Source of the DNA: Solirubrobacterales bacterium
GTDB taxonomy: Bacteria; Actinomycetota; Thermoleophilia; Solirubrobacterales; 70-9
Length of the DNA stretch: 32,907 bases
Direction: 5' to 3'
NCBI GenBank assembly: GCA_035573435.1
Contig: DATMZR010000004.1
Location: 1 to 32,907, forward strand
A program made the position numbers and the translations under genes. Shown here one piece after another: positions 820-32,421 of the stretch. Within the stretch, counting starts at the first letter, position 1. Every line of letters begins with the position of its first letter. Below the pieces are notes generated by a model. The model was given only the letters and a program-made list of their open reading frames with translations, was not told where the DNA came from and did not search any database.

Positions 820-1833
820 TTAAGCCGGCGTCGCCACGGCGCCCATTCCGGCGAGCCTGGCGACGCGCTCGCGGTGGAGGCGAGGATCGCCGAGCAGCTC
901 GCCTCCGACCTTGGCTCGCTTGAGCAGGAAGTGGAGGTCGTGCTCCCAGGTGAAGCCGATGCCGCCGAGCACCTGGAGTGCATCATTGGTCACCCGCCAG
1001 GCGGCATCTGAGGCCCTCGCCTTTGCCATCGAGCCCGCCAAAGCCAAGGACTCGGGCTCGTCGTCGGCGCACCAGGCGGCGTAGTAGGTGAGGGACCGCG
1101 CCTCCTCTACGTCGTAGAGCATCCCGGCGCAGCGGTGCGATACGGCCTGATAGGCGCCGATCGGGCGGTCGAACTGCTGGCGCTCCTTGGCGTAATCGAT
1201 CGCGAACTCCATCGCCCGCTGCGCGATCCCGGTGAGCTCCGCAGCGAGCGCCACCAGCGACCGGTCCGCGGCCGCCTCGACGTCGCCTGGGAGCCGATCG
1301 CCGTCCGTGTCCTGGACCCGCGCGTAGAGGCGAGTCGCATCCACCAGCTCGATGGGCTCGATCTCTGCGTCACCCGCCTCCACCAGGACCGCGCGATCTC
1401 CGTCGTTCAGGACCAGCACCGTGGCACCCGCGGCATCCGGGACGAGCGCGTTGCTTCGGGGCTCGAAGGCGGCCGCACCTCGCAGCTCACCCGAGGCGAT
1501 CCCGGGCAACCATCGCTGCCGCTGCTCGTCGGTTCCAGCCTGATCGATGAACAGGCCCGCCGAGGCGTTGGACAGGAAAGGCGCCGGCGCGCAGGCGTAG
1601 CCGAGCTCCTCGCAGAGGATCGCCAACTCCACCATGCCGAGCCCCTGGCCCCCGTGGTCCTCCGGGATTGCGATCCCGGGCCAGCCGAGGCTGCGGATCT
1701 CGGCCCAGAGGGCGTCGTCGTAGGCTCGAGCCTCGGCCGCCTGGCGGACCTTCTCCAGGGGCGAGCGCTTGGCCAGCATCTCGCGAGCCGTCTCCTTGAT
1801 CGCCTGCTGCTCGTCGTTGAAGCCGAAGTCCAC
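820..1833 (-). CDS. Acyl-CoA dehydrogenase family protein, short subunit
   Basis: This is a flavin-dependent acyl-CoA dehydrogenase-type protein of 337 residues. The family motifs include the N-terminal helical domain (WPGIAIPEDHGGQGLG), the C-terminal helical domain (YAKERQQFDRPIGAYQAVSHRCA) and GGIGFTWEHDLHFLLKRA near the end. It is shorter than the usual 380 residues; the central beta domain is reduced and the Ser/Thr-rich flavin loop is poor. I see no IEGGT-type catalytic glutamate, unlike the gene just upstream. Such pairs in actinobacteria (FadE/ChsE type) form alpha-beta heterotetramers in which one subunit carries the base, so a partner role is likely. I chose GTG at 1833, five bases after the upstream stop; an ATG at 1860 would overlap that gene. 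The substrate cannot be told. Confidence 0.85.
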   Translation of the reverse strand: MDFGFNDEQQAIKETAREMLAKRSPLEKVRQAAEARAYDDALWAEIRSLGWPGIAIPEDHGGQGLGMVELAILCEELGYACAPAPFLSNASAGLFIDQAGTDEQRQRWLPGIASGELRGAAAFEPRSNALVPDAAGATVLVLNDGDRAVLVEAGDAEIEPIELVDATRLYARVQDTDGDRLPGDVEAAADRSLVALAAELTGIAQRAMEFAIDYAKERQQFDRPIGAYQAVSHRCAGMLYDVEEARSLTYYAAWCADDEPESLALAGSMAKARASDAAWRVTNDALQVLGGIGFTWEHDLHFLLKRAKVGGELLGDPRLHRERVARLAGMGAVATPA

Positions 1834-1837
1834 GGGG

Positions 1838-2974
1838 TTACCTGAGCCTCGGCAGGCCAAGGACGCGCTCGGCGATGATGTTCTTCATCACGTCCGTGGT
1901 GCCACCCTCAATCGAGTTGGCACGCGAGCGCAGCAGGCGATAGGCCCACTCGGAGCCGGGCGCCAGCGCTTCGGGCCCCAGCACATCCGTGGCCAACTCG
2001 GTCAGGCTCTGATTCATGTTCGCCCATTCCCACTTCGCGAGCGATCCCTCGGGCCCCGGGATTCCCACCTTCATCTGCTGGGTGAGAGCGCGCAGCGCCC
2101 CGAACCGAAGGGCCTCGATGCCGATCTTGAGCCCCCCGATCCGCTGACGGATGACGGGGTCCTCGCCGAGGCCGCGCTCGTTGATCAGCCCGATCAGCTC
2201 GTCCAGGTCGCGCCGCACCTGAATCGCGGAGGCCGCTCCGATGCCTGCCCGCTCGTGCATGAGGGTCGTGATCGCGACGTTCCAGCCATTTCCCTCCCCG
2301 CCCATCAGGTTCTCCTCCGGGACATAGGCGCCCTCGAAGAAGATCTCGTTGAACTCGGCCTCCCCTGTGATCTGGCGCAGCGGGCGAACCTCGATCTCGT
2401 CCTGCTGCATGTCGCAGATGAAATAGGTGAGGCCCTTGTGCTTTGGCGCCTCGGCATCAGAGCGCGCGAGCAGCATGCACCACCTCGCCTCATGGGCGAA
2501 GGTGGTCCAAACCTTCTGGCCTGTAATTCGCCATCCCCCGTTCTCGCGGACGGCTTTCGTCTTCAGCGAGGCGAGGTCGGAGCCGGATTCGGGCTCGGAG
2601 AATCCCTGGCACCAGATCTCCTCTGCGGACAGGATCGGCTCCAGGAAGCGCTCCTTCTGCGCCTCCGTGCCGTGGTTGATCACCACCGGGCCCCCCATCA
2701 CGAGACCGAGCACGTTGGCAGGCGAAGGGGCCTTCGCCCGCGCCATCTCCTCGGAGAAGATCGCCTGCTCGATCAAGGTGGCGCCGCGGCCGCCGTACTC
2801 CTTCGGCCACGAGATCCCGGCCCAGCCCGCGTCGTGGAGCTTGCCCTGCCAGTCGCGGCGAAACTCGAACTTCGCGTCCTCGCCGTCCGGCTCGGCCCCG
2901 GGGTGGTTGGCCTCCAGCCAGGCACGAACCTCGTCTCGGAACGCCTCCTCTTCCGGGGTCAGCGTGAGGTCCAT
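1838..2974 (-). CDS. Acyl-CoA dehydrogenase, catalytic subunit
   Basis: This 378-residue protein, the family's normal length, oxidises an acyl-CoA to the enoyl-CoA using FAD. Visible motifs are GWAGISWPKEYGG (about 50-62), the flavin/substrate signature WCQGFSEPESGSDLASL (121-137), the strand segment WRITGQKVWTTFAHEA, and the C-terminal SIEGGTTDVMKNIIAERVLG, where E356 sits at the position of the catalytic base in FadE-type enzymes. It precedes the shorter subunit by a four-base gap, so the two are probably co-expressed as a heteromer. The ATG at 2974 lacks a Shine-Dalgarno but lies nine bases after a TAGAGT box, suggesting leaderless or near-leaderless transcription. Fatty-acid, branched-chain or steroid-side-chain substrates are all possible. 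Confidence 0.93.
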   Translation of the reverse strand: MDLTLTPEEEAFRDEVRAWLEANHPGAEPDGEDAKFEFRRDWQGKLHDAGWAGISWPKEYGGRGATLIEQAIFSEEMARAKAPSPANVLGLVMGGPVVINHGTEAQKERFLEPILSAEEIWCQGFSEPESGSDLASLKTKAVRENGGWRITGQKVWTTFAHEARWCMLLARSDAEAPKHKGLTYFICDMQQDEIEVRPLRQITGEAEFNEIFFEGAYVPEENLMGGEGNGWNVAITTLMHERAGIGAASAIQVRRDLDELIGLINERGLGEDPVIRQRIGGLKIGIEALRFGALRALTQQMKVGIPGPEGSLAKWEWANMNQSLTELATDVLGPEALAPGSEWAYRLLRSRANSIEGGTTDVMKNIIAERVLGLPRLR

Positions 2975-3103: not shown

Positions 3104-4084
3104 CTAGTCGAAGATGTACAGCATGGCCAGGGCCGCGCCGACCCAGGTGACGGCCGCGAAGATCATGCCGGGGTCTTGCGTCAGGATCGCCGAGGTGGAA
3201 CGCGTGTCCCCGCGGTCGTAGATCAGGTACAGGTACCGGAAGATTCCGTACAGGACCGAGGGCGCGGTCGCGAGCATGCGGGTGCCGATCAGGGGACTGT
3301 TGACGGCGTAGATCGCGTAGCTCATGATCGCTGCCGCGGTCACCATCGCCACCATCTGATCGAGGAAGGCGAGCGAATAGTGCTCCAGCACGGGCCGCGT
3401 GACCGGGGACCGCGCCGCGGTCGCTGCTGATGAGGAAGCGGCCACGGATTGCTCCGACATCGCCTCCTGGCGGCGTTTGGTGAAGCCCAGGAAGAGGGCG
3501 AGCATCGCTGTGCAGAGGAGCAGCCACTCCGAGGCTTCGGCCTCGACCGCAACCGCGCCGCCCACCACCCGGAGGAGGAACAGCGACGCGATCGTCATCA
3601 CGTCGAGGATCACGAGTCGCTTGAGGACCAGCGAGTAGGCGGCGGTGATCACGCCATACAGAGCCACGAGCCCGGCGACCTCGGGCGAGACCCCGATCAG
3701 CGCCACCCCGACGCCGATCACCGCCAGGACGATCGCCCAAGCCCAGGCGGTCGCGACTGGGAGTGCCCCGCTGGCGATCGGGCGAAGGCGCTTCTCCGGG
3801 TGCTGCCGGTCATGCGCCCGGTCTCGGAGATCGTTGAACAGGTAGCCGGCGCTCGAGATCGCGCAGAAGGCGGTGAAGGCGAGCGTGGCATCGAGGACCT
3901 GGGCCCCCTCATCGAGCTTGCCCGAGAACAGCAGGCCCGCGAACACGAGCAGGTTCTTGATCCACTCCTGCGGGCGCATCGCGACCAGCAGCGCGTGCGG
4001 CTTCGACCTGGCGACCGGAGCGGTGGCTGACGCGGGCACACCGGAAACGGGCGGCCGCTCCTCGGTCACCGTTTCCATGCTCAC
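3104..4084 (-). CDS. UbiA-family prenyltransferase, decaprenyl-phosphate phosphoribosyltransferase-like
   Basis: An integral membrane protein of 326 residues with about eight or nine hydrophobic segments. It has the opening RPQEWIKNLLVFAGLLFSGKL, typical of decaprenyl-phosphate phosphoribosyltransferase-like UbiA proteins, and the aspartate motif YLFNDLRDRAHDRQHPEKRLRPIASG that binds the prenyl (pyro)phosphate through magnesium; the second Asp region is probably LVILDVMTIASLFLLRV. These enzymes move a polyprenyl-linked group at the membrane. The family is broad, so phosphoribosyl transfer is the nearest guess and transfer in lipid or quinone synthesis is an alternative. The gene follows the FAD oxidase by four bases, so it is the last gene of the SDR-oxidase-prenyltransferase operon. 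MSMETV allows a start two codons later. Confidence 0.85.
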   Translation of the reverse strand: MSMETVTEERPPVSGVPASATAPVARSKPHALLVAMRPQEWIKNLLVFAGLLFSGKLDEGAQVLDATLAFTAFCAISSAGYLFNDLRDRAHDRQHPEKRLRPIASGALPVATAWAWAIVLAVIGVGVALIGVSPEVAGLVALYGVITAAYSLVLKRLVILDVMTIASLFLLRVVGGAVAVEAEASEWLLLCTAMLALFLGFTKRRQEAMSEQSVAASSSAATAARSPVTRPVLEHYSLAFLDQMVAMVTAAAIMSYAIYAVNSPLIGTRMLATAPSVLYGIFRYLYLIYDRGDTRSTSAILTQDPGMIFAAVTWVGAALAMLYIFD

Positions 4085-4088
4085 AAGG

Positions 4089-5711
4089 TTAGGGGTCCAG
4101 GAGGACCCCGGGGTTCAGTACGCCCGCCGGGTCCACCGCGCGCTTCGCGGCGCGCAGACCCTCCGCGAACGGATCCGGGCGCTGCCGGTCGTACCACGGG
4201 CGGTGGTCGCGGCCAACCGCGTGGTGGTGCGTGATCGTGCCTCCCGCCTCGATTACGGCCTCCGAGACGGCCGCCTTCACCTCGTCCCACTGCTCCACCT
4301 CCCCGCCGCGGACCGCGGGGCAGATCACGGTGTAGTAGGGGGCGGGGCCGTCGGGGTACACGTGGGTGAAGCGGCAGGTCAGCCGCGGTGAACCAGAGCC
4401 GTTCGGGGGTGCCCCACAGACCTCGGCGATGGCGCCGCGGGCGGTCTCCATGACGGCGTCGTGGAACGCGCCGAAGCGCTCCCAGGTGATCGCCGTCTCG
4501 AAGGTGTCGGAGAGCACGCCACAGGCGACGAACGTGTCGCGCAGGTACGGCGCCGCGAGAAAGGCGTGGCGCCATGCCCCGACCGCGTCGGCGGCCTCCG
4601 GCCTCGAGGGCGAGGCCTCGCCCACCTGCCCGCCGTGGTCCCGGGCGGCGTCGAGTGCGATCCGCATGGGCTCCTCCACCGGGTGGTGCGCCGACTCGAA
4701 GCCGAGCACGAGCAGGGCCTTCCCCGCCGGCCCGGCGTGAGTGAGCTCGGACTCCGCCGGGTCGAGGAGACGGCAGTTGGAAGGATTGAGCCCGGACTGC
4801 GCCAGCTCCCGCACCGCCTCCGCGCCGCTCGCGAAGGACTCGAATGCAACCCCGCGTGAGACCTTCCAGCGGGGGCGCTCCCGGACCCGCACCCAGGCCT
4901 CCGTGATCACACCGAGAATTCCCTCCGAGCCGAGCAGGAGCCGATCGGGACTGGGCCCGGCGCCCGACCCGGGAAGGCGTCGGCTCTGCCAGAGGCCGCT
5001 GGGGGTGACCGCCCGCACCGACTCGACCAGGTCATCGATGTGGGTGTAGAGGGTCGCGAAGTGACCGCCGGCGCGCGTCGCGATCCAGCCGCCAAGGGTG
5101 GAGAACTCGAACGACTGCGGGAAATGGCGAAGCGTCAGGCCCTGCTCCCGGAGCTGGTCCTCGAGCACCGGCCCCGTGGCGCCGGCCTGGATCAGCGCCG
5201 CCTGGGAGATGTCGTCGACCTCGAGCACGCGGTCCATACGACGCAAGTCGACCGTCACCACCCCGGCGTAGGCGTCGCCGATTCGAGGCTCGACGCCACC
5301 GACCACGCTCGTGCCGCCTCCGTAGGGAATCGCGGCGAGGCGCTCCTCCGCACACCAGGCGAGCACCGCTTCGACCTCGCGCTCATCGCCGGGGTGCGCC
5401 ACCAGATCCGGCGGATCCTCGATCAAGCCCCGGAAACCGCGCACGACGTCCCGGTAGGCCCTGCCGAGCGCGTGCGAGACCCGCTCGTAGGGATCGGAGC
5501 GACAGAGGTGAGACAGCGACGGGGGCGGCTCGACCCGGGGCTGCGCCAGCTCGATTGCCTCGAGTGGCACCGGCTGCTCGGCCTCGGCGGCACCGAAGCC
5601 CAGCCGTTCGCGGATGTCCGGCGCGGCCGCCTCGAGCTGGTCGCGGGTCAGGGCCTGGTCCTCGAAGCCCCAGCCCCAGTGCTTTCGCCGGCGGGTCGCT
5701 GCGTCTACCAG
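4089..5711 (-). CDS. FAD-binding oxidase of the alkyl-DHAP synthase type
   Basis: A vanillyl-alcohol-oxidase-fold flavoprotein. Motifs fit alkyldihydroxyacetonephosphate synthase: the FAD loop AAIPYGGGTSVVGGVE, HFPQSFEFSTLGGWIATRAGGHFATLYTHIDDLV, the histidine run ITHHHAVGRDHRPW and the end AVDPAGVLNPGVL. In that family the enzyme swaps the acyl group of acyl-DHAP for a fatty alcohol, making an ether bond. The first GTG (5570) gives 493 residues but leaves out an in-frame upstream stretch encoding RRKHWGWGFEDQALTRDQL, a conserved N-terminus of these proteins. No ATG, GTG or TTG lies in that stretch, so I extend to a CTG at 5709-5711 that overlaps the end of the previous gene (540 aa). The start is uncertain; the family call is firmer than the exact substrate. 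Confidence 0.83.
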   Translation of the reverse strand: MVDAATRRRKHWGWGFEDQALTRDQLEAAAPDIRERLGFGAAEAEQPVPLEAIELAQPRVEPPPSLSHLCRSDPYERVSHALGRAYRDVVRGFRGLIEDPPDLVAHPGDEREVEAVLAWCAEERLAAIPYGGGTSVVGGVEPRIGDAYAGVVTVDLRRMDRVLEVDDISQAALIQAGATGPVLEDQLREQGLTLRHFPQSFEFSTLGGWIATRAGGHFATLYTHIDDLVESVRAVTPSGLWQSRRLPGSGAGPSPDRLLLGSEGILGVITEAWVRVRERPRWKVSRGVAFESFASGAEAVRELAQSGLNPSNCRLLDPAESELTHAGPAGKALLVLGFESAHHPVEEPMRIALDAARDHGGQVGEASPSRPEAADAVGAWRHAFLAAPYLRDTFVACGVLSDTFETAITWERFGAFHDAVMETARGAIAEVCGAPPNGSGSPRLTCRFTHVYPDGPAPYYTVICPAVRGGEVEQWDEVKAAVSEAVIEAGGTITHHHAVGRDHRPWYDRQRPDPFAEGLRAAKRAVDPAGVLNPGVLLDP

Positions 5712-7825
5712 TGAACGCCCCGCATCAGGTATGCGAAGGCGACCTGCTCCCTGGACGCCTCCTCGTTGGTCGCCGGCCTCCCGGGTGCCTCAGCTTTCTC
5801 GCCTCGCGCTGCCTGCGAGTCGGGGAACAGCTTGTAGGCGCTGTTGAGGATGTAGTCCATGGACTTCGGGTTGATTGCGTAGAGGATCTGGCCGAGCGTC
5901 CCGAGCGGAGTCGCGATCCGCTTCGGCCTGTGGATGATCGCCTCGCAGATCATGTCGGCCGCCCGGTCGGGCGTGATGGTGGGGAAGCGGTCGTACATCT
6001 TCGTCGGCTTGATCATCGGAGTGCGGACAAGGGGCATGTTGATGGTGGTGATCGCCACGCCCTCGTCCACGATCTCGGAGGCGACGCAGCGCGAGAAGGC
6101 GTCCAGCGCCGCCTTCGATGCGACGTAGGCCGAGAAGCGCGGCGTGTTGGTCTGCACGCCGATGGAGCTGATGTCCACGATTTGGCCTGAGCGCCGCTCG
6201 CGCATCAGCGGCAGGAACCTCAGGATCAGCTTCACGGCGCCGAAGTAATTGAGCTGCATCGTGCGCTCGAAGTCGTGGAAGCGGTCATACGAGAGGGCGA
6301 TCGAGCGGCGGATCGAGCGGCCGGCGTTGTTGACCAGGATGTCCACGTGGCCGTGCTGCGCAAGGACCTCGTCGGCCATCCGGTCGACGTCGTCCATGTC
6401 GGATAGGTCACAACGGTGAATGTGCGCAACGCCGCCGTTGGTTTCGATCTGAGTCTTGGTCTCTTCGAGCTTCTCGGGAGTGCGGGCGACGAGCAGAACG
6501 ATGCCGCCGGCGTCGGCGATCTTCAACGCCGCTGAGCGACCGATTCCCGACGACGCCCCAGTGACCAGGACAATCCGTCCCCGGACGGCCTGTTCGAGGG
6601 ACACCGTGCCCAGGACACGCCGCGCGAGCCGTAGCAGCTCGTCCGGGATCTGCTGCTCGATGATCTGGGTCGCCCCACCCACGGCGCCCGCTCTTCCGCG
6701 GACGGCTCCGACCAGCGTGCGGTCGCGGAACAGGTCCGGGTCGAGGTGGCGCTCCCAGTAGTCCCAGAGCTTGTCGGCGTACGCCTGAAGCGGCGGCACC
6801 CTGATGTCGGTCCCGCTCAGCGCCGCCTGCGCCTGGCGGCTGTCGAAGCTGGTCGGGTAATTGACGTAGGTGAGGACCGAGCGTGGGATACCGAAGTCCG
6901 CCAGGATGCTGTCGGCCGCAATCCCGGCCGGCGGCACCATCACCAGGCCCTTGAGCAGAGGCGCGATGGCTTCGACCGCGGCGGGCGGGACCCGTAAGGA
7001 CGACTGCGGGGCGTGTGCGGCGCGCGCGAAGATGTCGATCACCTCGCCGGCAGTCTTCGGGTTTGGATCGGTGAGATGGAAGGCCTGGCCGTCTCCCTCG
7101 TCCCGGTGGGCGATGTGGTCCATCGCCCGGGCGACGAAGTCCACGGGAACCAGGTTGATCTCCCTCCCCTCGACACCCACCATCGGTATCCACTGGGGGA
7201 CTGCGTTGCGCAGGCGGCGGATCAGCTTGAAGAAGTAATAGGGGCCGTCGATCTTGTCCATCTCGCCCGTCTCCGAGTGACCCACGACGATCCCCGGCCG
7301 GTAGACCCGCCACGGCCTGGAGCACTCGGTTCGGACAACAGCCTCGGAGTCGTGTTTGGTCCTGAAGTAGGGATTGGTGTCGAGGTTCTCGGCCTCCTCG
7401 AACATGTCCTCCCGCCAGGTCCCCTTGTAGAGGCCCGCGGCTGCGATGGAGCTGACCATGTGGACACGGCCGGCCTCCACCGCCTCGGCGAGCTCGACCA
7501 TGTGACGCGTTCCCTCCACATTGGCGACGCGTTGGCTCTCGGCGTCGGCGGTCATGTCGTAGATCGCCGCCAGGTGGAAGAGATGGTCGACCTCGCCGGT
7601 GAGGCGCTCGAGGTTCGCCTCGGAGACCCCGAGCCGCGGCTGGGAGAGGTCGCCGGGGATCCCGACTACCCGCTGATCGTCCGTGTCCCAGCGGCTTCGC
7701 AGCTCCTGCAGGCGGCCCTTGGAGCCCTCGCGCACCAGCACGTAGATGGTTCCCTCGCGCTCCAGCAGCAGCTCGACGAGGTTGCGACCGATGAAGCCCG
7801 TGGCGCCGGTGACGAAGTAGCTCAT
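5705..7825 (-). CDS. Two-domain SDR protein, fatty acyl-CoA reductase-like
   Basis: A 706-residue protein made of two short-chain dehydrogenase domains. Residues 1-360 are an extended SDR with the nucleotide loop TGATGFIG (6-13) and catalytic Y153/K157 (YFRTK), resembling acyl-CoA or thioester reductase domains. Residues about 412-690 are a classical SDR with TGASSGIG (422-429), NNAG (499-502), S553/S554 and YVASK (Y567, K571). The order matches mycobacterial AcrA1-type fatty acyl-CoA reductases, which make fatty aldehyde or alcohol with NAD(P)H. It has a strong ribosome site, GGAGGAG, before the ATG. It is first in an operon with an alkyl-DHAP-synthase-like oxidase, which would consume a fatty alcohol; that link is inference. 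A role as a paired epimerase/dehydrogenase cannot be excluded. Confidence 0.88.
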   Translation of the reverse strand: MSYFVTGATGFIGRNLVELLLEREGTIYVLVREGSKGRLQELRSRWDTDDQRVVGIPGDLSQPRLGVSEANLERLTGEVDHLFHLAAIYDMTADAESQRVANVEGTRHMVELAEAVEAGRVHMVSSIAAAGLYKGTWREDMFEEAENLDTNPYFRTKHDSEAVVRTECSRPWRVYRPGIVVGHSETGEMDKIDGPYYFFKLIRRLRNAVPQWIPMVGVEGREINLVPVDFVARAMDHIAHRDEGDGQAFHLTDPNPKTAGEVIDIFARAAHAPQSSLRVPPAAVEAIAPLLKGLVMVPPAGIAADSILADFGIPRSVLTYVNYPTSFDSRQAQAALSGTDIRVPPLQAYADKLWDYWERHLDPDLFRDRTLVGAVRGRAGAVGGATQIIEQQIPDELLRLARRVLGTVSLEQAVRGRIVLVTGASSGIGRSAALKIADAGGIVLLVARTPEKLEETKTQIETNGGVAHIHRCDLSDMDDVDRMADEVLAQHGHVDILVNNAGRSIRRSIALSYDRFHDFERTMQLNYFGAVKLILRFLPLMRERRSGQIVDISSIGVQTNTPRFSAYVASKAALDAFSRCVASEIVDEGVAITTINMPLVRTPMIKPTKMYDRFPTITPDRAADMICEAIIHRPKRIATPLGTLGQILYAINPKSMDYILNSAYKLFPDSQAARGEKAEAPGRPATNEEASREQVAFAYLMRGVHW

Positions 7826-8296: not shown

Positions 8297-11200
8297 ATGG
8301 CGAACTCGGGGATCGTCGAGATCGAGATGCCCCAGATGGGGGAATCGGTGACCGAGGGCACCGTGCTCGAATGGCACAAGCAGGAAGGGGAGTTCGTCGA
8401 GGAGGGTGAGACGGTGGTCGAGGTCTCGACCGACAAGGTCGACGCCGAGGTGCCCGCCCCGGCGAGCGGCACGATTACCAAGATCCTCAAGGGCGTGGAC
8501 GAGACGATCGAGGTCGGCGGAGCGCTCGCCGAGCTCGACCCGACCGCCAAACCGTCCGGAGACGGCGCGAGCGCGGAGGCCCCGACCGACAGGGCCGAAG
8601 ATGCGCCCGCCCGGGCTAGCGACGAAGTCGCGGTGCAGGCGAGTGAACCTGCCGCCCCGCCCGCGTTGCAACCCGCCGACTCCGAGGCCGGCACGGATGC
8701 CACTTTGGCCGAGGGGTCGGCGGTTGAAGTCCGAATGCCCGAGATGGGAGAGTCGGTGACCGAGGGCACCATCCTCGAGTGGCACAAGAGCGAGGGGGAT
8801 TTCGTCGAAGAGGGCGACACCGTGGTCGAGGTCTCGACCGACAAGGTCGATGCCGAGGTGCCCGCCCCGGCGAGCGGGACGATCACCAAGATCCTCGCCC
8901 AGCCCGACGAGACCGTGAAGGTGGGCCAGGTTCTCGCGGAGCTGTCGGCGGCCCAAGGCGGCGACGGTCGCCCTAGCGGCCAAGCCGCGGTGCAAGACGT
9001 TGAACCTGCCGCCACGCCCGCGCCCAAGCCCGCCGGAAACGGAAGCGAAGCCGAGGCTTCCGGCGGATTGGTGTCGCCGGTGGCCCGGCGCATCGCGAAG
9101 GCGAAGGGCATCGATCTGAGCAGCCTCGAGGGGTCCGGGCCGGGCGGCAAGGTCACCAAGGCCGACGTGCTGGCCGCCACCGACGGCGCGGGCGACGGCG
9201 CTGCGGCGCCGGCGCGGGTGGCGCCAGGCGAGGCGAAGCCCCTGCGAGGTCCGGCCGCGACGCTGGCCAAGGCGATGAACGAGAGCCGCTCGATGCCCAC
9301 GGCGACCTCGTTCCGGACGCTTCCGGTGGACGTCCTCGATGCAAAGCGGAAGGCCCTCAACGGGGTCCTCAAGGACCGCGGCATGAAGGTCTCGTTCACT
9401 CATCTGGTCGCCTGGGCAATCGTCGAGGCCGCGAAGGATTGGCCGGTGATGGCGCGCGTCTACGAGGAGCGGGACGGCAAGCCGCAGGTCGTCGAGCCGG
9501 GCGGCGTCAACCTGGGGATCGCCGTCGACGTCGAGCGCAAAGGGGCGCGAAGCCTCATGGTCCCGTGCATCAAGGGAGCAGGCTCCCTCGAGTTCGCCTC
9601 CTTCCACGGCCGTTACGAGGAGCTGATCACCAAGACGCGCGAGAACAAGCTGACGGCCGACGATTTCCAGGGGACAAACGTGACCCTGACCAACCCCGGC
9701 GGCCTCGGCACGGTGGCATCGGTTCCACGCCTGTTGAACGGCCAGGGGACGATCGTCGCCACAGGCTCCATCGCCTACCCGGTCGAATGGGCCCACGCCC
9801 CGGCAGAGAGGATCAAGGCGCTCGGCATCTCGAAGGTGATGACGATGACGTCGACGTACGACCATCGCATCATCCAGGGAGCCGAGTCGGGATCCTTCCT
9901 GCGGCGCATCGACGAGCTGCTGCAGGGCGAGGATGGCTTCTACGAGTCGGTTGCCGAATCGCTCGGGCTCTCCCCCACCGTGACTGCCAAGGCCTACCCG
10001 GCCTCCGCCTCGGCATCGCCACTGGCCCCAAGCGAAGCGCCCGCGGCGCCGACCGCGGTGCCGCCCGACACCGAGCTGCTCCAGGGTGTGCAGGCGGCAA
10101 CCTCGCTGCTCAAGGCCTACCGTACGCACGGGCACCTGGCGGCGCACCTCGACCCGTTGGGCACCGAGCCTGCCGGCGATCCCGCGATCGAGCCCGAGAA
10201 CCTCAACCTGACACCGGAGCTGATGGGCAAGATTCCGGCCTCGATCCTGCGGATCGGGGTCGAGGGCGAGACGCTGCTCGAAGCGCTGCCCCGGATGCGC
10301 GAGGCGTACTGCGGCACGATCGCGTATCAGATCGAGCACCTCTCCTCGCACCAGCAGCGTATGTGGCTGCGAGAGATGATTGAGACGGGCGCCCATCGTC
10401 GTCCGCTCGACGCCGAGGAGAAGCGCGCCCTGCTCTTTCGCCTTGTCCAGGTCTTCGAGTTCGAGCGGTTCATCCAGAAGGCCTACCTGGGCCAGAAGGT
10501 GTTCTCGATCGAGGGCCTCGACGCCGTGGTGCCCATGATCGACGAGCTGGTGACGCTCGGGAGGCGCGGCGGCGCGGAGGAGATCGTGCTTGGGATGGCG
10601 CACCGCGGGCGGCTGAGCGTTCTGGCCCACAACCTGGGTCGCCCCGAGGCGTCGATCCTGGCCGAGTTCGAGGGAGCGAAGGCCCTCGAGCAGGTCAAGG
10701 CCATCGCCGCGATTCCCCATTCCGGCACCGGCGACGTCAAGTACCACTACGGCGCCGAGGGAATGTTCACCACCCGCGACGGCGACCAGGCAAAGGTTCG
10801 CCTCTATCCGAACCCCAGCCACCTCGAGTTCGTGGACCCGGTGGTGACCGGGGCCGCCCGGCTTGAGCAGACCTCCCACGCCGGCCCTCAGCTCGAGCAC
10901 ACGCCCGCCGTGGCGGTTCCGCTGCTGCTGCACGGCGACGCGGCCTTCCCCGGACAGGGAGTGGTGGCCGAGACGCTCAATCTCCAGTCCCTCGCCGGCT
11001 ACTCGACCGGGGGCACCGTCCACATCATCACCGACAACCAGGTGGGCTTCACCACCGATCCCGAGGACGCACGATCCACGCCCTACGCCAGCGACCTCGC
11101 CAAGGGCTTCAACATGCCCATCGTCCACGTGAACGCCGACGACGTCGAGGGCTGCGTCGCGGCGATCCGCCTCGCCATGGCCTACCGGGAACGCTGGGGC

Positions 11201-12676
11201 CGGGACGTGGTCATCGACCTGATCGGCTACCGCCGCTACGGGCATAACGAGACCGACGAGCCCGCCTACACCCAGCCCACGATGGCGGCGCAGATCAAGA
11301 GCCATCCGCCCGTTTCCCAGATCTATGCGGACCAACTGGTGAAGGAAGGGGTCGTCACCCCGGAGGAGGTCGAAGCAAACGGCAGGAATCGCCGCGAAGA
11401 GCTGCAGCGGCTCCACAAGGAGCTGAAGCGCAAGATGCTGGCGGGCGAGTACGAGGACCCGACCTCCACCCAGATCGGCACGCACGAGCTCGACCGCACC
11501 AAGAGCCCCGAGGTCGAAACCTCCGTCTCCGAGGAGCGCCTGCGATCCCTGAACGAGGAGCTGCTCCGGGTGCCGGAGAGCTTCACGATCCACCGCAAGC
11601 TTCGAAAGCCGCTGCTGCGCCGGCTCGAGGTGCTCGACGAGGGGCCGATCGAATTCGGCCATGCCGAGGCGCTCGCCTTCGCATCGCTGTTGACCGAGGG
11701 CACCCACATCCGCCTCACCGGCCAGGACACCGAGCGCGGCACCTTCTCGCACCGTCACCTGGCCCTGTACGACGAGAAAACGGGCCTCAAGTACGTGCCG
11801 ATTCAGAACCTGTCCGGCGCGCTAGCGCCCTTCGAGCTCCACAACAGCCCGCTGTCGGAAGCCGCGTGCCTCGGCTTCGAATACGGATACTCGGCAGCCT
11901 CACCCTCGAGCCTGGTGCTGTGGGAGGCGCAGTTCGGCGACTTCGGCAATGCCGCGCAGGTGATCATCGACAGCTTCATCGCCTCCGGCGAGGCGAAGTG
12001 GGGCCAAACAACGCGGCTGACACTGCTGCTGCCGCACGGCTACGAGGGGTCGGGGCCCGAGCACTCCAGCGCAAGGATCGAGCGCTTCATCGCGCTGGCT
12101 GCCGAGGGAAACCTGCGGCTTGCGAATCCGACCACCGCAGCCCAGTACTTCCACCTGCTGCGCCGCCAGGGCCGGCTCAGCAAGGCGCGGCCGCTGGTCG
12201 TGTTCACCCCCAAGGGCCTGCTGCGCCACAAGGATGCGGCCTCGCGGCTGGCCGACCTCACCTCCGGGGGATTCCAGTTCGTGCTGGACGACCCGCGCGC
12301 CGCCGACCGCAAGGACCAGGTCGAGCGGCTCGTGCTTTGCAGCGGCAAGGTCTATTTCGACATCGACGGCCACGAGCGCCGCGAGGACGCCGCGTCGGTG
12401 GCGATCGCCCGCGTCGAGCTGCTCTATCCCTTTGCGAAGGACCAGATCCGCAAGCTGATCGCCGGCTATCCCAAGTTGAAGGAGATCGTCTGGGCGCAGG
12501 AGGAGCCCCAGAACATGGGGGCCTGGAAGGTGATGACCCGGCGAATGCCGGAGCTCGTCCCGAACGAGGTGGAGTTCCGCTACGTGGGCCGGCCGCAGCG
12601 GGCCAGCCCGAGCGAGGGCTATCCCGGCGCCCACCGCTCCGAACAGGAGCGGATCGTGCTCACCGCGCTGACTTAA
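8297..12676 (+). CDS. kgd: Fused 2-oxoglutarate dehydrogenase: two lipoyl domains, E3-binding, E2 and E1 (1459 aa)
   Basis: One protein holds most of the 2-oxoglutarate dehydrogenase complex. Residues 5-81 and 143-217 are lipoyl domains with STDKVDAE motifs (lipoylated K47 and K183). Residues about 258-293 (VARRIAKAKG... GPGGKVTKADV) are a peripheral-subunit-binding domain that would dock E3. Residues about 315-560 are the E2 acyltransferase; its active-site motif is DHRIIQG (H523) with Gln for the usual Asp, as in mycobacterial KGD. From about 595 to the end is the thiamine-diphosphate E1, with AHRGRLSVLAH, the GD...N cofactor motif (D881 to N914) and GYEGSGPEHSSARIERF. Mycobacterial KGD (about 1230 aa) has E2 and E1 but no lipoyl or E3-binding parts. 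The linkers contain copies of the interspersed repeat. Aconitase is nearby but on the other strand. No E3 gene is seen. Confidence 0.95.
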   Translation: MANSGIVEIEMPQMGESVTEGTVLEWHKQEGEFVEEGETVVEVSTDKVDAEVPAPASGTITKILKGVDETIEVGGALAELDPTAKPSGDGASAEAPTDRAEDAPARASDEVAVQASEPAAPPALQPADSEAGTDATLAEGSAVEVRMPEMGESVTEGTILEWHKSEGDFVEEGDTVVEVSTDKVDAEVPAPASGTITKILAQPDETVKVGQVLAELSAAQGGDGRPSGQAAVQDVEPAATPAPKPAGNGSEAEASGGLVSPVARRIAKAKGIDLSSLEGSGPGGKVTKADVLAATDGAGDGAAAPARVAPGEAKPLRGPAATLAKAMNESRSMPTATSFRTLPVDVLDAKRKALNGVLKDRGMKVSFTHLVAWAIVEAAKDWPVMARVYEERDGKPQVVEPGGVNLGIAVDVERKGARSLMVPCIKGAGSLEFASFHGRYEELITKTRENKLTADDFQGTNVTLTNPGGLGTVASVPRLLNGQGTIVATGSIAYPVEWAHAPAERIKALGISKVMTMTSTYDHRIIQGAESGSFLRRIDELLQGEDGFYESVAESLGLSPTVTAKAYPASASASPLAPSEAPAAPTAVPPDTELLQGVQAATSLLKAYRTHGHLAAHLDPLGTEPAGDPAIEPENLNLTPELMGKIPASILRIGVEGETLLEALPRMREAYCGTIAYQIEHLSSHQQRMWLREMIETGAHRRPLDAEEKRALLFRLVQVFEFERFIQKAYLGQKVFSIEGLDAVVPMIDELVTLGRRGGAEEIVLGMAHRGRLSVLAHNLGRPEASILAEFEGAKALEQVKAIAAIPHSGTGDVKYHYGAEGMFTTRDGDQAKVRLYPNPSHLEFVDPVVTGAARLEQTSHAGPQLEHTPAVAVPLLLHGDAAFPGQGVVAETLNLQSLAGYSTGGTVHIITDNQVGFTTDPEDARSTPYASDLAKGFNMPIVHVNADDVEGCVAAIRLAMAYRERWGRDVVIDLIGYRRYGHNETDEPAYTQPTMAAQIKSHPPVSQIYADQLVKEGVVTPEEVEANGRNRREELQRLHKELKRKMLAGEYEDPTSTQIGTHELDRTKSPEVETSVSEERLRSLNEELLRVPESFTIHRKLRKPLLRRLEVLDEGPIEFGHAEALAFASLLTEGTHIRLTGQDTERGTFSHRHLALYDEKTGLKYVPIQNLSGALAPFELHNSPLSEAACLGFEYGYSAASPSSLVLWEAQFGDFGNAAQVIIDSFIASGEAKWGQTTRLTLLLPHGYEGSGPEHSSARIERFIALAAEGNLRLANPTTAAQYFHLLRRQGRLSKARPLVVFTPKGLLRHKDAASRLADLTSGGFQFVLDDPRAADRKDQVERLVLCSGKVYFDIDGHERREDAASVAIARVELLYPFAKDQIRKLIAGYPKLKEIVWAQEEPQNMGAWKVMTRRMPELVPNEVEFRYVGRPQRASPSEGYPGAHRSEQERIVLTALT
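8613..8692 (-). repeat. Interspersed repeat copy D, inside the first lipoyl linker
   Basis: Bases 8613-8634 match the GCTAGCGACGAAGTCGCG end of copies A and B exactly on the reverse strand. The middle matches copy C better (GTGAACCTGCCGCC), and the hairpin half is shortened, leaving CCCGCCGACTCCGAGGCC, so the stem is broken. It is read in frame as an Ala/Pro/Glu-rich linker (about residues 106-132). The hairpin has probably decayed after insertion, or the copy arose with the duplicated lipoyl domain. Confidence 0.6.
8972..9068 (-). repeat. Interspersed repeat copy C, inside the second lipoyl linker
   Basis: Read on the reverse strand, the first 41 bases match copy B with two mismatches, and the 9-bp stem CCGCCGGAA (9030-9038) with TTCCGGCGG (9058-9066) is intact. 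The rest matches more loosely through to GCTAG at 8973. It is translated in frame as residues about 226-257, a Pro/Ala/Gly/Glu linker before the E3-binding domain. The element is thus complete yet keeps the reading frame open. Confidence 0.75.
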
Positions 12677-20040: not shown

Positions 20041-21180
20041 GTGGGGCGCGGCTGTTGCCGCGTCGTGCACGTGGAGGACACTGCAGCCATCACCGTTGAC
20101 GACCGGGGGAGTGAGCAGCCCTCCGAGCCTGCCGCGCCGTCCGAGAAATCCTCTTCCGAGCCACCAGACGTCCGCCTCTCCGGCGTGCGCAAGACCTATG
20201 GCGAGGTTGTCGCCGTCGCCGGAGTCGACCTCGAGATTCCCCGCGGGGAGTTCTTCACCCTGCTGGGGCCCTCCGGGTCCGGGAAGACGACCACCCTCCG
20301 CATGATCGCCGGCTTCGAGGAGCCCGACGCGGGCTCGGTCGAGCTGGCCGGCCGAGACGTCAGCCGCCTCGCTCCGTACGACCGCGAGGTCAACACCGTG
20401 TTCCAGGACTACGCACTGTTCCCGCATATGACGGTGGCCGAGAACGTCGAGTACGGGATGCGGGTCCGTAAGGTGGCCCGCTCTGAGCGCGCCACCCGCG
20501 CCACTCAGGCGCTGGAGATGGTCCGGCTCTCGGGCTACGGGTCACGGAAACCGGGGGAGCTGTCCGGGGGCCAGCGACAGCGGGTGGCGCTCGCGCGAGC
20601 GATAGTCAACCGCCCCAGGGTGCTGCTCCTGGACGAGCCGCTGGGAGCGCTCGACCTGAAGCTGCGCGAGCAGATGCAGGTCGAGCTGAAGGGAATTCAG
20701 AACGAGGTCCGGATCACCTTCATCTACGTGACCCACGACCAGGACGAAGCCTTGACCATGAGCGACCGGATCGCAGTTTTCAACAAGGGGCGCATCGAGC
20801 AGGTGGGAGTGCCGGCCGAGATCTACGAGCGGCCGGCGACCCGGTTCGTGACCGGCTTCGTGGGGGTCTCCAACCTGCTCGAGCGGGACGGCAGGCGGTT
20901 CACGGTGAGGCCCGAGAAGATCAGGCTGCTCGAATCGACTGAGAAGGTGGACGGACTCCACACCGAGCGCGGCGTGATCCGGGACGTGGCCTACGCGGGA
21001 ATGATCACCCGCTACCTGGTTCAGCTCGATGAGGGCGGGGAGCTTCAGGTCGTCCGCCAGAACCTCGAGACCTCCTCCGCGGAGGCGCTCGGGCAGCGCG
21101 GTCGGCAGGTAACGGTCGGATGGCGACCCGAGCAAGCGGTGGCCGTCCAGGATGAGAAACGAAGAGAGGAGTTCCAGTGA
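20041..21180 (+). CDS. potA: ABC transporter ATP-binding protein, spermidine/putrescine type
   Basis: This 379-residue ATPase powers the importer encoded by the next three genes. It shows Walker [16 protein letters not shown], the Q-loop [11 protein letters not shown], signature [14 protein letters not shown], Walker [14 protein letters not shown] and the switch histidine [10 protein letters not shown]. The C-terminal part (from about 285) is a TOBE regulatory domain ([12 protein letters not shown]). The first 45 residues are an acidic, low-complexity extension. Starts at GTG 20041, 20065 or 20071 are all possible; a TATAGCT stretch at 20031 would favour the later ones. Its stop overlaps the next start in GTGA. 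The polyamine label comes from the family; other cationic substrates are possible. Confidence 0.92.
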
Positions 21181-22454
21181 GAGAAGGGCTCGACCGCCAT
21201 CCAGCAAGGGTGGCTTGGCTGATCGCCGCCGGCCTGATCATGGCCATGGTGGGCGTCGGCTGCGGAGACGATGACAACGGAGGCGGTGGCGAGGAGCTTC
21301 AGAGCGTCGGCAAGGGCGAGGGCAAGCTGGCCCTGCTCGCCTGGGTGGGGTACGTCGAAGATGGCTCCACGTCCTCGAAGGTCGACTGGGTGACGCCGTT
21401 CGAGAAACAAACAGGCTGCCAGACGAGCGTCAAGGTCTTCAATACCTCGGACGAGGCCGTGCAGCTGATGCGGACCGGTCAGTACGACGGCGTCTCGGCT
21501 TCCGGCAACGGATCGGCGCGCCTCGTGGATGGCGGCGACGTCGACCCCGTCAACGTCGACCTTGTCCCGAACTACGAGACGGTGTTCGATGACCTCAAGG
21601 ATCAGCCCTACAACACCTTCGACGGGACCCACTACGGGATCCCGCACGGGCGTGGGGCCAACCTGCTGGTCTGGAACACCGACGACGTCACGCCGGGGCC
21701 GAAGTCCTGGGACGTCATCCTCGATCCCAACAAGGCCGCGAATTACAAGGGCCAGATCAGCGTCTACGACGATCCGATCTACATCGCCGACGCGGCCGTG
21801 TACCTGAAGGCGCACCAGCCCGACCTCGGAATCGAGAACCCGTACGAGCTCAACGAGGAGCAGTTCAACGCCGCGGTGGACCTGCTCAAGCAGCAGCATC
21901 CGAACGTTGGCGAGTATTGGACCAACGCGCTGAAGCAGATCACGTCCTACACGAACGGTGACGTCGTGGTGGGCACCTCGTGGCAGTACCAGTACTTCAC
22001 GTTGCTGGCTGACGGCCAGCCGGTTGCCGCCAGCCCCGCCTCACAGGGGTTCGTCCCGGATGAGGGTGCGACCGGGTGGTCTGACACCTGGATGATCAGC
22101 TCCCAGGCCGAGCACCCGAATTGCATGTACAAGTGGATGGACTGGGTGATCTCGCCCCAGGTCAACGCGGAGATCGCGCAGTGGTTCGGCGAGGCTCCGG
22201 CGCAGAGCAAGTCGTGCGAGACCTCGACGCTCACCGCCGCTGCGAAGAACATCGGGTTGGCGCCAGACCCGAAGTTCTGCGACAACTACCACGCGGCAGA
22301 CCCCGCGTTCTGGGAGCGCGTCTACTACTGGAACACGCCGGTGAGCGATTGCGCGACGGTCGACCAGAAGGCGCATTCGGACCAGGCCGGCAGCGGTGAC
22401 GACTGCAAGGACTACAACGATTGGCTCCAGGCCTGGACCCAGATCAAGGGGTGA
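21177..22454 (+). CDS. Extracellular solute-binding lipoprotein, PotD type (425 aa)
   Basis: The substrate-binding part of the importer. The N-terminus has a hydrophobic segment ([16 protein letters not shown]) ending in a lipobox cysteine at C29, then an Asp/Gly linker, so the mature protein is anchored on the outer face. The body follows the PotD-like fold: [72 protein letters not shown]. The C-terminal region has several cysteines (CETST, FCDNYH, SDCATV, DDCKDY), unusual for PotD and likely to form disulfides. The order ATPase, binding protein, permease, permease differs from the second importer in this window. Confidence 0.9.
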
Positions 22455-22483
22455 TGGACGAATCCAAATGACGCAGTTCAGCC

Positions 22484-23383
22484 GTGGAGGCTGCTGACGC
22501 CCTAGCGTCAGAGCCCAGGAGGTCGGTGGGCCGCAGGCTCGCCGACCTCTTCCACGGCCGCCCCCGCCTGCAGGTCGGCAGCCTGCTGGCCGGCCCGCTG
22601 GGCTGGCTGGTGATCCTGTACCTCGGGTCACTGGGCGTGATGCTCATCGCCGCGTTCTGGAGCGTCGACGCGCTCAGCGGTGAGATCTCCCACACCTTCA
22701 GCACGGACAACTTTCAGACGCTGATCGACGATTCCGTCTACCGGGACGTCGCTCAGCGAACAGTCCTGATCGCGGCTCTCGTCACCCTCACCGACGCGCT
22801 GCTCGCGTTTCCGATCGCCTTCTACATGGCAAAGGTCGCGAGCCCGCGGATGAAGGGGACGCTCGTGGTGGCGATCCTGATGCCCCTCTGGTCGTTCTAC
22901 CTGGTCAAGGTCTATGCCTGGCAGACGATGCTCTCGGCCGGAGGCGTGATCAACTGGGCCCTCGACCCGATCGGGCTCAACGGCCCGGGATATGGGTCCA
23001 CCGCGGTCTGGCTGGTGGAGAGCTACCTCTGGCTGCCGTTCATGATCCTGCCCATCTACGCCGGCCTGGAGCGCATCCCGAACTCGTTGATCAGCGCCTC
23101 CGAGGACCTCGGCGCGTCACCGCTGACGACGTTCAGGCGCGTCATCCTGCCGCTGGCCTTCCCGGCCGTCGTCGCCGGCTCGATCTTCACCTTCTCGCTC
23201 ACCCTCGGCGACTACATCACGCCGTCGCTGGTCTCGCCCGACACCCAGTTCATCGGCAACGTGGTCTACAACAACATCGTCAACAACCTGCCCCTGGCCT
23301 CCGCCTTCGCGACCGTGCCGATTCTGGTCATGGTCGCCTACCTGTTCATCGCGCGGAGGCTGGGGGCCTTCGAGCATCTGTAG
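22484..23383 (+). CDS. ABC transporter permease, PotB type (299 aa)
   Basis: A six-helix membrane subunit: LLAGPLGWLVILYLGSLGVMLIAAFW, VLIAALVTLTDALLAFPIAFYMA, LVVAILMPLWSFYLVKVYAW, LWLPFMILPIYAGL, IFTFSLTLGDYI, and VPILVMVAYLFIA. The EAA loop that contacts the ATPase reads SASEDLGASPLTTFRRVILPLAFP. The GTG at 22484 has no ribosome site. A GTG at 22526 preceded by AGGAGG at short spacing is an alternative (285 aa) and would drop only a polar stretch. Two tiny overlapping frames lie between the binding protein's stop and this start. The next permease starts two bases after the stop. Confidence 0.9.
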   Translation: MEAADALASEPRRSVGRRLADLFHGRPRLQVGSLLAGPLGWLVILYLGSLGVMLIAAFWSVDALSGEISHTFSTDNFQTLIDDSVYRDVAQRTVLIAALVTLTDALLAFPIAFYMAKVASPRMKGTLVVAILMPLWSFYLVKVYAWQTMLSAGGVINWALDPIGLNGPGYGSTAVWLVESYLWLPFMILPIYAGLERIPNSLISASEDLGASPLTTFRRVILPLAFPAVVAGSIFTFSLTLGDYITPSLVSPDTQFIGNVVYNNIVNNLPLASAFATVPILVMVAYLFIARRLGAFEHL

Positions 23384-23385
23384 CG

Positions 23386-24240
23386 ATGCGGCTGTCACGG
23401 CGATCCAAGGGCATGCTCGGCCTCGGCGTTGGGGTCACGCTGGCCTTCATCTACATCCCCCTGGTCGTGATCGCGATCTACGCGTTCAATGGGGGGACGA
23501 CGCTCAGTTGGCCGCTCGAGAGCGTCACCACCGAGTGGTTCGGGAAGGCACTCGACAACCAGGGGGCCCGCGACGCACTCTGGACCTCCGTCAGGGTTGG
23601 AGCGGCTGCCACCGGAGTCGCGCTCTTGCTGGGCACCCTGGCCTCCTTCGCGGTCGCCCGCTATCGCTTCTTCGGCCGCGAGACGGTCTCGTTCCTCGTC
23701 GTGCTGCCGCTGGCCCTGCCCGGCATCGTGACCGGCGTGGCGCTCAGCAACACCTTCACCCAGGTCTTCGGCGTCGACCTCAGCCTCTTCACGGTCGTCG
23801 TCGGCCACGCGACCTTCTGCATCGTCGTCGTCTACAACAACGTGATCGCCCGACTGCGCCGGGTCTCGGAGAACCTCGAGGAAGCCTCCGCCGACCTCGG
23901 AGCGCACACCTGGCAGACCTTTCGGTTCGTCACGTTCCCGAGCATGCGGACTGCGCTAGTCGCGGGCGGCCTGCTCGCGTTTGCCCTCTCCTTCGACGAG
24001 ATCATCGTCACCACGTTCACGATCGGGGCGGGTGAGCAGACCCTTCCGATCTGGATCTTCAGCAACCTGTTCCGCGGCCAGCAGTTCCAGCTCACGAACG
24101 TCGTGGCCGTGATGGCGGTGTTGATCTCCATCATCCCGGTCTACCTGGCCCACCGACTGACCCTCGAGGAGGGTGGCGCCACCGCCGGCCGCGGGGCCCG
24201 CGGCGAGGCCGAGATCGCTGAGGTAACCGCCGTTCCCTGA
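23386..24240 (+). CDS. ABC transporter permease, PotC type (284 aa)
   Basis: The second membrane subunit, with six helices and the EAA loop LEEASADLGAHTWQTFRFVTFPSM. Other PotC-like marks are IYIPLVVIAIYAFNGG near the start, LVVLPLALPGIVTGVALS and ALSFDEIIVTTFTIG. It pairs with the preceding permease. The C-terminus is a short acidic tail (GEAEIAEVTAVP). It ends the plus-strand operon; its stop is only six bases from the stop of the convergent ATPase gene, with no terminator between, so the two transcripts probably overlap. Confidence 0.92.
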   Translation: MRLSRRSKGMLGLGVGVTLAFIYIPLVVIAIYAFNGGTTLSWPLESVTTEWFGKALDNQGARDALWTSVRVGAAATGVALLLGTLASFAVARYRFFGRETVSFLVVLPLALPGIVTGVALSNTFTQVFGVDLSLFTVVVGHATFCIVVVYNNVIARLRRVSENLEEASADLGAHTWQTFRFVTFPSMRTALVAGGLLAFALSFDEIIVTTFTIGAGEQTLPIWIFSNLFRGQQFQLTNVVAVMAVLISIIPVYLAHRLTLEEGGATAGRGARGEAEIAEVTAVP

Positions 24241-24246
24241 AATTCG

Positions 24247-27103: not shown

Positions 27104-27113
27104 TGGCCCGTGC

Positions 27114-32356: not shown

Positions 32357-32421
32357 CGTTGGCCTCCTGACTGGTTTTGGGTCCGGCCGACCCGGTGGTC
32401 GGCCACCCCTCCTCGCCTGAG

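What the first reader, a model, noticed from the sequence alone, without database searches (positions are those of the whole stretch)
4089..7825. Acyl-CoA reductase, alkyl-DHAP-synthase-like oxidase and prenyltransferase in one operon: candidate ether-lipid locus
A reductase that makes fatty alcohol and an oxidase of the alkyl-DHAP synthase family are consecutive enzymes in ether-lipid synthesis, and they overlap here, followed by a membrane prenyltransferase. Ether or alcohol-derived lipids have been reported in deep-branching actinobacteria, but a complete gene route of this type is not something I know to be established for this group.
Basis: partly seen in the sequence, partly recalled or inferred. 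Interest (0 to 1): 0.62.

Follow-up and report, generated by a model that had tools for sequence, protein, structure and literature searches.

The report
Ether-handling flavoprotein beside a fatty-alcohol reductase
An uncultured actinobacterium carries an alcohol-making enzyme next to a flavin enzyme from the family that builds ether lipids, but that flavin enzyme is a closer relative of a bacterial protein found in gene clusters for breaking down ether-linked chemicals such as polyethylene glycol, so this is probably not the ether-lipid gene it was taken for.

Summary
The genes are real. FAR (5705-7825, -), an AGPS-superfamily flavoprotein ('A', 4089-5570, probably starting at CTG 5711 and overlapping FAR by 7 bp), a UbiA protein (3104-4084) and two acyl-CoA dehydrogenases form one same-strand cluster in a Solirubrobacterales genome.

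The oxidase is not of the lactate/glycolate type. It keeps every AGPS catalytic residue I recalled and checked, HHH included. But it lies in a sister clade to AGPS. Its relatives there include an oxidase followed by a GST gene in a probable PEG-degradation cluster on a plasmid of a PEG-degrading Sphingopyxis (best candidate for PEG-carboxylate dehydrogenase, an ether-cleaving enzyme), and oxidases on plasmids of dioxane degraders. Window protein to PEG-type: 46%, 456 bits. To Dictyostelium AGPS: 30%, 250 bits. Grouping the window clade with AGPS is rejected (AU p 0.0005). The genome has a second paralogue ('B', contig C8), which sides with true AGPS.

FAR-A linkage is confined to one family and no tighter than linkage to unrelated sucBA. 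The UbiA is a decaprenyl-phosphate phosphoribosyltransferase type. No GNPAT/PlsB-type acyltransferase was found.

Best reading: a flavoenzyme acting on R-O-CH2-C(=O)- ethers, more likely cleaving than making them (about 0.4). Ether-lipid synthesis by this gene: about 0.25; B is the better candidate.

The parts
5705..7825 (-). Two-domain fatty acyl-CoA reductase (FAR): N-terminal thioester-reductase-like NAD_binding_4 domain, C-terminal SDR domain
   Evidence: Pfam PF07993 167 bits and PF00106 183 bits; NCBIfam NF005539 951.9 bits, cut-off 549; GATGFIG, YFRTK (153-157) and YVASK (567-571) motifs intact
4089..5711 (-). AGPS-superfamily FAD protein, clade A; 493 aa from GTG 5570, probably about 540 aa from CTG 5711, overlapping the FAR stop codon
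   Evidence: PDB AGPS hits; equivalents of guinea pig H300, T309, S367, R419, R515, Y578 and H615-617 kept at H149, T158, S215, R267, R344, Y412 and H448-450; tree places it with PEG/dioxane-plasmid relatives, not with AGPS; CTG start conserved in genus
3104..4084 (-). UbiA-family membrane transferase of the decaprenyl-phosphate phosphoribosyltransferase type
   Evidence: NF008978 209.4 bits, cut-off 207; NF008977 227.2, cut-off 234; PDB 8j8j E 1.4e-27; NDLRD motif
1838..2974 (-). Acyl-CoA dehydrogenase, large-subunit type, same strand downstream
   Evidence: PF00441/PF02771/PF02770; nearest model pimC 257 bits, far below its cut-off
820..1860 (-). Acyl-CoA dehydrogenase, small-subunit type, overlapping the previous gene
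   Evidence: PF00441/PF02771; nearest model IpdE2 178 bits, far below its cut-off
8297..12676 (+). Divergent neighbour: fused 2-oxoglutarate dehydrogenase E2-E1 (SucB-SucA), the synteny yardstick
   Evidence: ORF with two lipoyl-like repeats and E2/E1 sequence read directly; adjacent to clade A gene also in families where FAR is not

Best explanation
The 4089-5711 gene encodes a flavoprotein of the AGPS superfamily, in a clade that is sister to AGPS and that I call clade A. It most likely acts on alkyl ethers next to a carbonyl, R-O-CH2-C(=O)-X. That is the group shared by alkyl-DHAP (the AGPS product) and by alkoxyacetates (the substrate type of PEG-carboxylate dehydrogenase). My preferred mechanism: FAD and the conserved HHH/Arg/Tyr site attack the O-CH2 carbon and break the ether, releasing the alcohol ROH plus a glyoxylate-level fragment. 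The neighbouring two-domain reductase would interconvert acyl-CoA, aldehyde and alcohol, and the two acyl-CoA dehydrogenases would feed chains into beta-oxidation. The UbiA protein belongs to a separate, polyprenyl-phosphate-ribose type reaction. Shown here: family, clade, residues and neighbourhoods. Inferred: substrate, direction of reaction, and that the neighbours work together. If the genome makes alkyl ether lipids, the AGPS-like enzyme for it is more likely paralogue B on contig C8.
For: Window protein against the S. macrogoltabida EY-1 plasmid protein: 45.6%, 456 bits. Against Dictyostelium AGPS: 29.9%, 250 bits. Paralogue B shows the reverse: 328 bits to Dictyostelium AGPS and 209 to the PEG-type protein. 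Tree: 48 clade A rows, including all 9 plasmid proteins, against 11 rows with B plus AGPS; SH-aLRT 100 with the outgroup and the guinea pig row left out, and 91/95 on the A branch with them. Window family plus Dictyostelium AGPS as one clade is rejected, AU p 0.00045. Fifteen clade-specific columns are shared by most clade A rows, nearly all of them also by the window and PEG-type proteins, including R148 beside H149 and A410-P411 beside Y412. Contexts of clade A: S. macrogoltabida EY-1, a PEG/PPG degrader (PMC4669395), has acyl-CoA synthetase, MFS transporter, clade A gene, GST, TonB receptor and GMC oxidoreductase. Xanthobacter dioxanivorans has GMC oxidase, aldehyde dehydrogenases, clade A gene, GST and glcDEF-like genes. 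A clade A gene also lies on a Mycobacterium dioxanotrophicus plasmid, and next to CaiB CoA-transferases on Polaromonas and Roseovarius plasmids. PCDH is reported as the ether-cleaving enzyme of PEG in Sphingopyxis (PMC7299911) and is linked to GST in the title of Somyoonsap 2008 (cited in PMC6987047).
Against: Not one clade A protein with a measured activity was matched letter for letter. The EY-1 protein is taken as PCDH from its size, FAD domains, GST neighbour and PEG cluster. The PEG-type proteins are on a long branch, and the fine order inside clade A is unresolved (17 open forks in the tree). The root is open: Dictyostelium AGPS joined to the whole of clade A is not rejected (AU p 0.51). 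All AGPS catalytic residues checked are kept, so synthase activity is not excluded; the EY-1 protein itself has Met in place of R515, which the window protein keeps. The gene is near-universal in its order (51 of 61 genomes), which is odd for a purely xenobiotic enzyme, and most clade A genes in Streptomyces and relatives stand alone, often beside a divergent TetR gene.
Confidence: 0.4

Rival explanations
1. One reading: FAR makes fatty alcohol, clade A protein exchanges it for the acyl group of acyl-DHAP, giving alkyl-DHAP and then alkyl ether membrane lipids.
For: AGPS catalytic residues intact; FAR directly upstream and probably translationally overlapping; linkage kept in 11 of 12 same-family loci read; precedent of the M. 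xanthus operon AGPS / FAR-GNPAT / epimerase (PMC9131029); a PlsC-GpsA fusion and FAR are near-universal in the order, while PlsY and PlsB/GNPAT C-terminal domains were not found in this genome.
Against: Clade A is apart from AGPS; paralogue B is closer to AGPS and has DagK as near or direct neighbour in two relatives; FAR without A in 9 genomes and A without FAR in 2; linkage no better than with unrelated sucBA; clade A outside this family is not next to FAR (4 of 89 loci have it); M. xanthus AGPS itself contributes only a minor share of ether lipids (PMC9131029).
Confidence: 0.25
2. The genes share a promoter by inheritance only: a flavin oxidase of unknown substrate, a housekeeping reductase, a cell-envelope UbiA and two acyl-CoA dehydrogenases with unrelated jobs.
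For: Synteny with sucBA is older (7 of 9 other-family loci) than synteny with FAR (0 of 9); the genes are lost independently.
Against: Probable 7-bp translational overlap FAR/A and 4-bp spacing A/UbiA; the cluster has outlived genus-level divergence (about 54-88% identity).
Confidence: 0.35

Closest known systems
PEG-carboxylate dehydrogenase (PCDH) of Sphingopyxis and its clade A relatives
   Same: 46% identity over 99% to the EY-1 oxidase that sits before GST in a PEG-type cluster; same two FAD domains; shared clade-specific residues beside the catalytic ones
   Different: Window gene is chromosomal, near-universal in its order, without GST or GMC dehydrogenase neighbours; PCDH identity of the EY-1 gene is inferred
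Alkyl-DHAP synthase (AGPS), Dictyostelium and guinea pig
   Same: Fold family, HHH motif, Arg, Tyr and His of the active site, N-terminal W-GWG motif
   Different: Only 30% identity; HFPQS in place of H[ED]PDS (Q for D303, shared with paralogue B); a separate clade
M. xanthus MXAN_1676-1674 operon (AGPS, FAR-GNPAT, epimerase)
   Same: AGPS-superfamily gene next to a fatty acyl-CoA reductase
   Different: No acyltransferase fused or adjacent here; UbiA and acyl-CoA dehydrogenases instead
Rubrobacter putative 1-O-alkyl glycerol phosphate operon (Sinninghe Damste et al. 2023, recalled, not held in the library)
   Same: Actinobacterial lineage with abundant alkyl ether lipids and a candidate operon
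   Different: Could not be compared here; whether it uses clade A or B is untested
Decaprenyl-phosphate phosphoribosyltransferase (UbiA, Rv3806c type)
   Same: Passes one curated cut-off; PDB 8j8j
   Different: No DprE1-type partner among the five FAD_binding_4 proteins scanned with NCBIfam

Membership tests
AGPS (alkyl-DHAP synthase) | VAO/PCMH-type FAD domains with the HHH catalytic motif | tested here: met
   FAD_binding_4 and FAD-oxidase_C; H448-H449-H450
AGPS (alkyl-DHAP synthase) | Active-site H300, R419, R515, Y578 (guinea pig numbers, recalled) | tested here: met
   H149, R267, R344, Y412
AGPS (alkyl-DHAP synthase) | Groups with characterised AGPS in a tree | tested here: not met
   falls in clade A; one clade of window family with Dictyostelium AGPS rejected, AU p 0.00045
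AGPS (alkyl-DHAP synthase) | Acyl-DHAP : alcohol exchange activity | not testable with these tools
   Needs enzyme assay
PCDH / ether-cleaving flavoprotein clade | Sequence grouping with the PEG-cluster protein | tested here: met
   but the inner order of clade A is unresolved
PCDH / ether-cleaving flavoprotein clade | Catabolic gene context (GST, GMC dehydrogenase, acyl-CoA synthetase) | tested here: not met
   Window has FAR, UbiA and two acyl-CoA dehydrogenases
PCDH / ether-cleaving flavoprotein clade | Glyoxylate release from alkoxyacetate | not testable with these tools
   Needs enzyme assay
D-lactate / glycolate oxidase | Best match and curated cut-off of GlcD-type models | tested here: not met
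   TIGR00387 125 bits, cut-off 568; PDB E about 1e-25 against 6e-70 for AGPS
Fatty acyl-CoA reductase, two-domain | NAD_binding_4 plus SDR domain with intact cofactor and YxxxK motifs | tested here: met
DprE1 (decaprenylphosphoryl-ribose oxidase) | Curated DprE1 model reached by some protein of the genome | tested here: inconclusive
   Best 94.5 bits, cut-off 500, among five scanned; two of ten FAD_binding_4 hits not scanned
Eukaryote-like ether-lipid pathway | GNPAT/PlsB-type DHAP acyltransferase (GPAT_C domain) | tested here: not met
   PF19277 absent in own genome, E. coli control rings
Ger/PlsA anaerobic ether-lipid pathway | HGD-D dehydratase-type domain | tested here: not met
   PF06050 absent in own genome, controls ring

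The most novel reading that the evidence does not exclude
One flavoprotein superfamily holds both the makers (AGPS) and the breakers (clade A) of alkyl ethers, using the same flavin and HHH/Arg/Tyr site in opposite directions. Clade A is a widespread, unrecognised group of bacterial ether-cleaving enzymes, of which a near-universal Solirubrobacterales enzyme next to a fatty alcohol reductase is one.
Probability: 0.3. Interest if true: 0.65.

Novelty: new member of a known kind. Interest (0 to 1): 0.38.

Why it matters
Presence of 'Agps homologues' is used in the literature to predict which uncultured bacteria make alkyl or alkenyl ether lipids (e.g. PMC11868695). If clade A cleaves ethers, such screens mix makers with breakers unless the two clades are separated; the separating columns are listed here. 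It would also point to candidate enzymes for breaking down PEG, dioxane-derived acids and glycol ethers, for which few ether-cleaving genes are identified (PMC7299911, PMC6987047).

Tried and rejected
Rejected: oxidase as glycolate or lactate oxidase; oxidase as DprE1 partner of the UbiA (its C-terminal domain and best matches are AGPS type). Tandem linkage as proof of one pathway was rejected, because unrelated sucBA is linked more widely.

No fold prediction was run, since sequence already fixes the fold.
Full report
What is there. On the minus strand of the window lie, in order of transcription, a 706-aa two-domain reductase (5705-7825), an AGPS-superfamily flavoprotein (4089-5570 by ordinary start codons), a UbiA protein (3104-4084) and two acyl-CoA dehydrogenases (1838-2974, 820-1860), divergent from a fused sucB-sucA gene (8297-12676, +). 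The genome has 2.58 Mb in 43 contigs and is 97% complete. Close relatives with names are Solirubrobacterales MAGs.

Start and overlap. AGPS-type proteins begin with a W-GWG motif. In the window this motif is encoded in frame upstream of GTG 5570 (RRRKHWGWGFEDQ), where there is no ATG, GTG or TTG. The three genomes of this genus share a CTG 12 codons before GWG, overlapping the last codons of FAR (CTGGTAG). Relatives in other genera mostly have ATG or GTG at about the same place. That start is inferred.

The reductase. NAD_binding_4 and SDR domains with intact GATGFIG, YxxxK and second YxxxK motifs match the layout of fatty acyl-CoA reductases (established knowledge of the family). It is found in 58 of 61 relatives. 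Outside the family of the window it is never next to the oxidase in the loci read.

The oxidase: superfamily. Its best solved relatives are AGPS of Dictyostelium and guinea pig (E 6e-70 and 2e-58). Glycolate and D-lactate types follow at about 1e-25. The GlcD model scores 125 bits against a cut-off of 568. Residues equivalent to guinea pig H300, T309, S367, R419, R515, Y578 and H615-H617 are all present. The roles of these residues in AGPS are from memory.

The oxidase: clade. The genome has a second AGPS-like gene, B, on contig C8 (43% identical). A 61-row tree puts B, a myxobacterial protein and both eukaryotic AGPS on one side (92/85) and the window protein with 47 others on the other (91/95). 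With the outgroup and the guinea pig row left out, the branch has SH-aLRT 100, and holding the window family together with Dictyostelium AGPS is rejected (AU p 0.00045). Joining Dictyostelium AGPS to the whole of clade A is not rejected (p 0.51), so the root between the clades is open. Pairwise scores agree. Window against the Sphingopyxis protein: 456 bits; against Dictyostelium AGPS: 250. B against Dictyostelium AGPS: 328; against the Sphingopyxis protein: 209. Fifteen columns separate the clades, several beside catalytic residues (R148 next to H149, A410-P411 next to Y412).

What clade A does elsewhere. Among named genomes it is in Streptomyces, Nocardia, Micromonospora, Binatia, Chloroflexi, Rhodopseudomonas and many others. 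Only 4 of 89 loci (80 genome loci and 9 plasmid loci) have FAR nearby. Recurrent neighbours in the genome loci are SDRs, luciferase-like flavin enzymes, AMP-binding ligases, enoyl-CoA hydratases, acyl-CoA dehydrogenases, CoA-transferases and TetR regulators. On plasmids it occurs in Sphingopyxis macrogoltabida EY-1, Xanthobacter dioxanivorans, Mycobacterium dioxanotrophicus, Polaromonas, Roseovarius, Moraxella and others. EY-1 grows on PEG and PPG (PMC4669395). Its clade A gene is followed by a GST gene and stands among acyl-CoA synthetase, MFS, TonB receptor and GMC oxidoreductase genes. The Xanthobacter locus shares the clade A-GST pair and has glycolate-oxidase-like genes behind it. PEG-carboxylate dehydrogenase, which cleaves the ether of PEG-carboxylate to glyoxylate, is reported from Sphingopyxis (PMC7299911), and a paper titled for PCDH and GST together is cited in PMC6987047. 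I recall that PCDH is a 64-kDa FAD protein encoded next to GST. The EY-1 protein (551 aa) fits, but the accession could not be compared here, so this identification is an inference.

Linkage as evidence. In 12 loci of the window's family read out, FAR and A are adjacent in 11. In 9 loci of three other families they are adjacent in none, yet 7 of these 9 keep A next to or near sucBA, a citric-acid-cycle gene of no obvious connection. Nine genomes have FAR without A and two have A without FAR. The UbiA is lost in at least four same-family genomes that keep FAR and A. The cluster therefore looks as much like inherited order as like a pathway unit.

The prenyltransferase. It passes one curated cut-off for decaprenyl-phosphate phosphoribosyltransferase (209.4, cut-off 207), just misses another (227.2, cut-off 234), and matches 8j8j. 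The best DprE1 score among five FAD_binding_4 proteins of the genome is 94.5 bits against a cut-off of 500. It is not evidence for ether lipids.

Rest of an ether-lipid route. No GPAT_C (PlsB/GNPAT) domain, with E. coli ringing as control, no PlsY and no HGD-D domain for Ger/PlsA. There are five PF01553 acyltransferases, one of them a PlsC-GpsA fusion conserved across the order. How this genome acylates the sn-1 position is open, so a DHAP-based route cannot be excluded. If it exists, B is the better AGPS candidate: it is closer to AGPS, has a diacylglycerol-kinase-like gene adjacent in Patulibacter and two genes away in one relative (kinase named from sequence, not scanned), and a gene that reads like a CDP-alcohol phosphatidyltransferase upstream in the same block (read from sequence, not scanned).

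Precedent. M. xanthus has an AGPS / FAR-GNPAT / epimerase operon with a minor role in ether lipids (PMC9131029). Agps homologues of Actinobacteria are listed among possible alkenyl-ether makers in the Black Sea (PMC11868695). From memory, Rubrobacter species have abundant alkyl ether lipids and a putative operon (Sinninghe Damste 2023, not held). So an actinobacterial route is not a new idea.

Verdict. Observation mostly right, interpretation only in part: the enzyme is an AGPS-superfamily member, but in the clade with the PEG/dioxane-plasmid proteins. I give 0.4 to an ether-cleaving or ether-acid role, 0.25 to alkyl-DHAP synthesis, and 0.35 to some other use with co-location by descent.

Noticed in passing
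window 5705-5711: Probable CTG start of the flavoprotein overlapping the FAR stop codon; conserved in three genomes of the genus, while other genera mostly use ATG/GTG at about the same place.
   Followed up: yes
L169 1366-3036 (own genome C6:8435-10099): PlsC acyltransferase fused to glycerol-3-phosphate dehydrogenase (556 aa), matched in 57 of 61 relatives; no PlsY and no PlsB/GNPAT C-terminal domain found in this genome, so the sn-1 acyltransferase is unknown.
   Followed up: partly
L054 9379-11010 (own genome C8): Second AGPS-like gene (B), on the AGPS side of the tree, the better ether-lipid candidate; a diacylglycerol-kinase-like gene is adjacent in L212 and two genes away in L056.
   Followed up: partly
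window 8297-12676: Fused 2-oxoglutarate dehydrogenase E2-E1 protein of 1459 aa with two lipoyl-like repeats, conserved in the order.
   Followed up: no
window 3104-4084: Decaprenyl-phosphate phosphoribosyltransferase-type UbiA kept in 32 of 37 same-family genomes, though no DprE1-type oxidase was found among the proteins scanned.
   Followed up: partly
window 20041-28229: Two ABC transporter sets with TOBE-domain ATPases and solute-binding proteins on opposite strands.
   Followed up: no
window 29562-32443: Amine-oxidase-like flavoprotein next to a Rieske ring-hydroxylating oxygenase alpha subunit.
   Followed up: no
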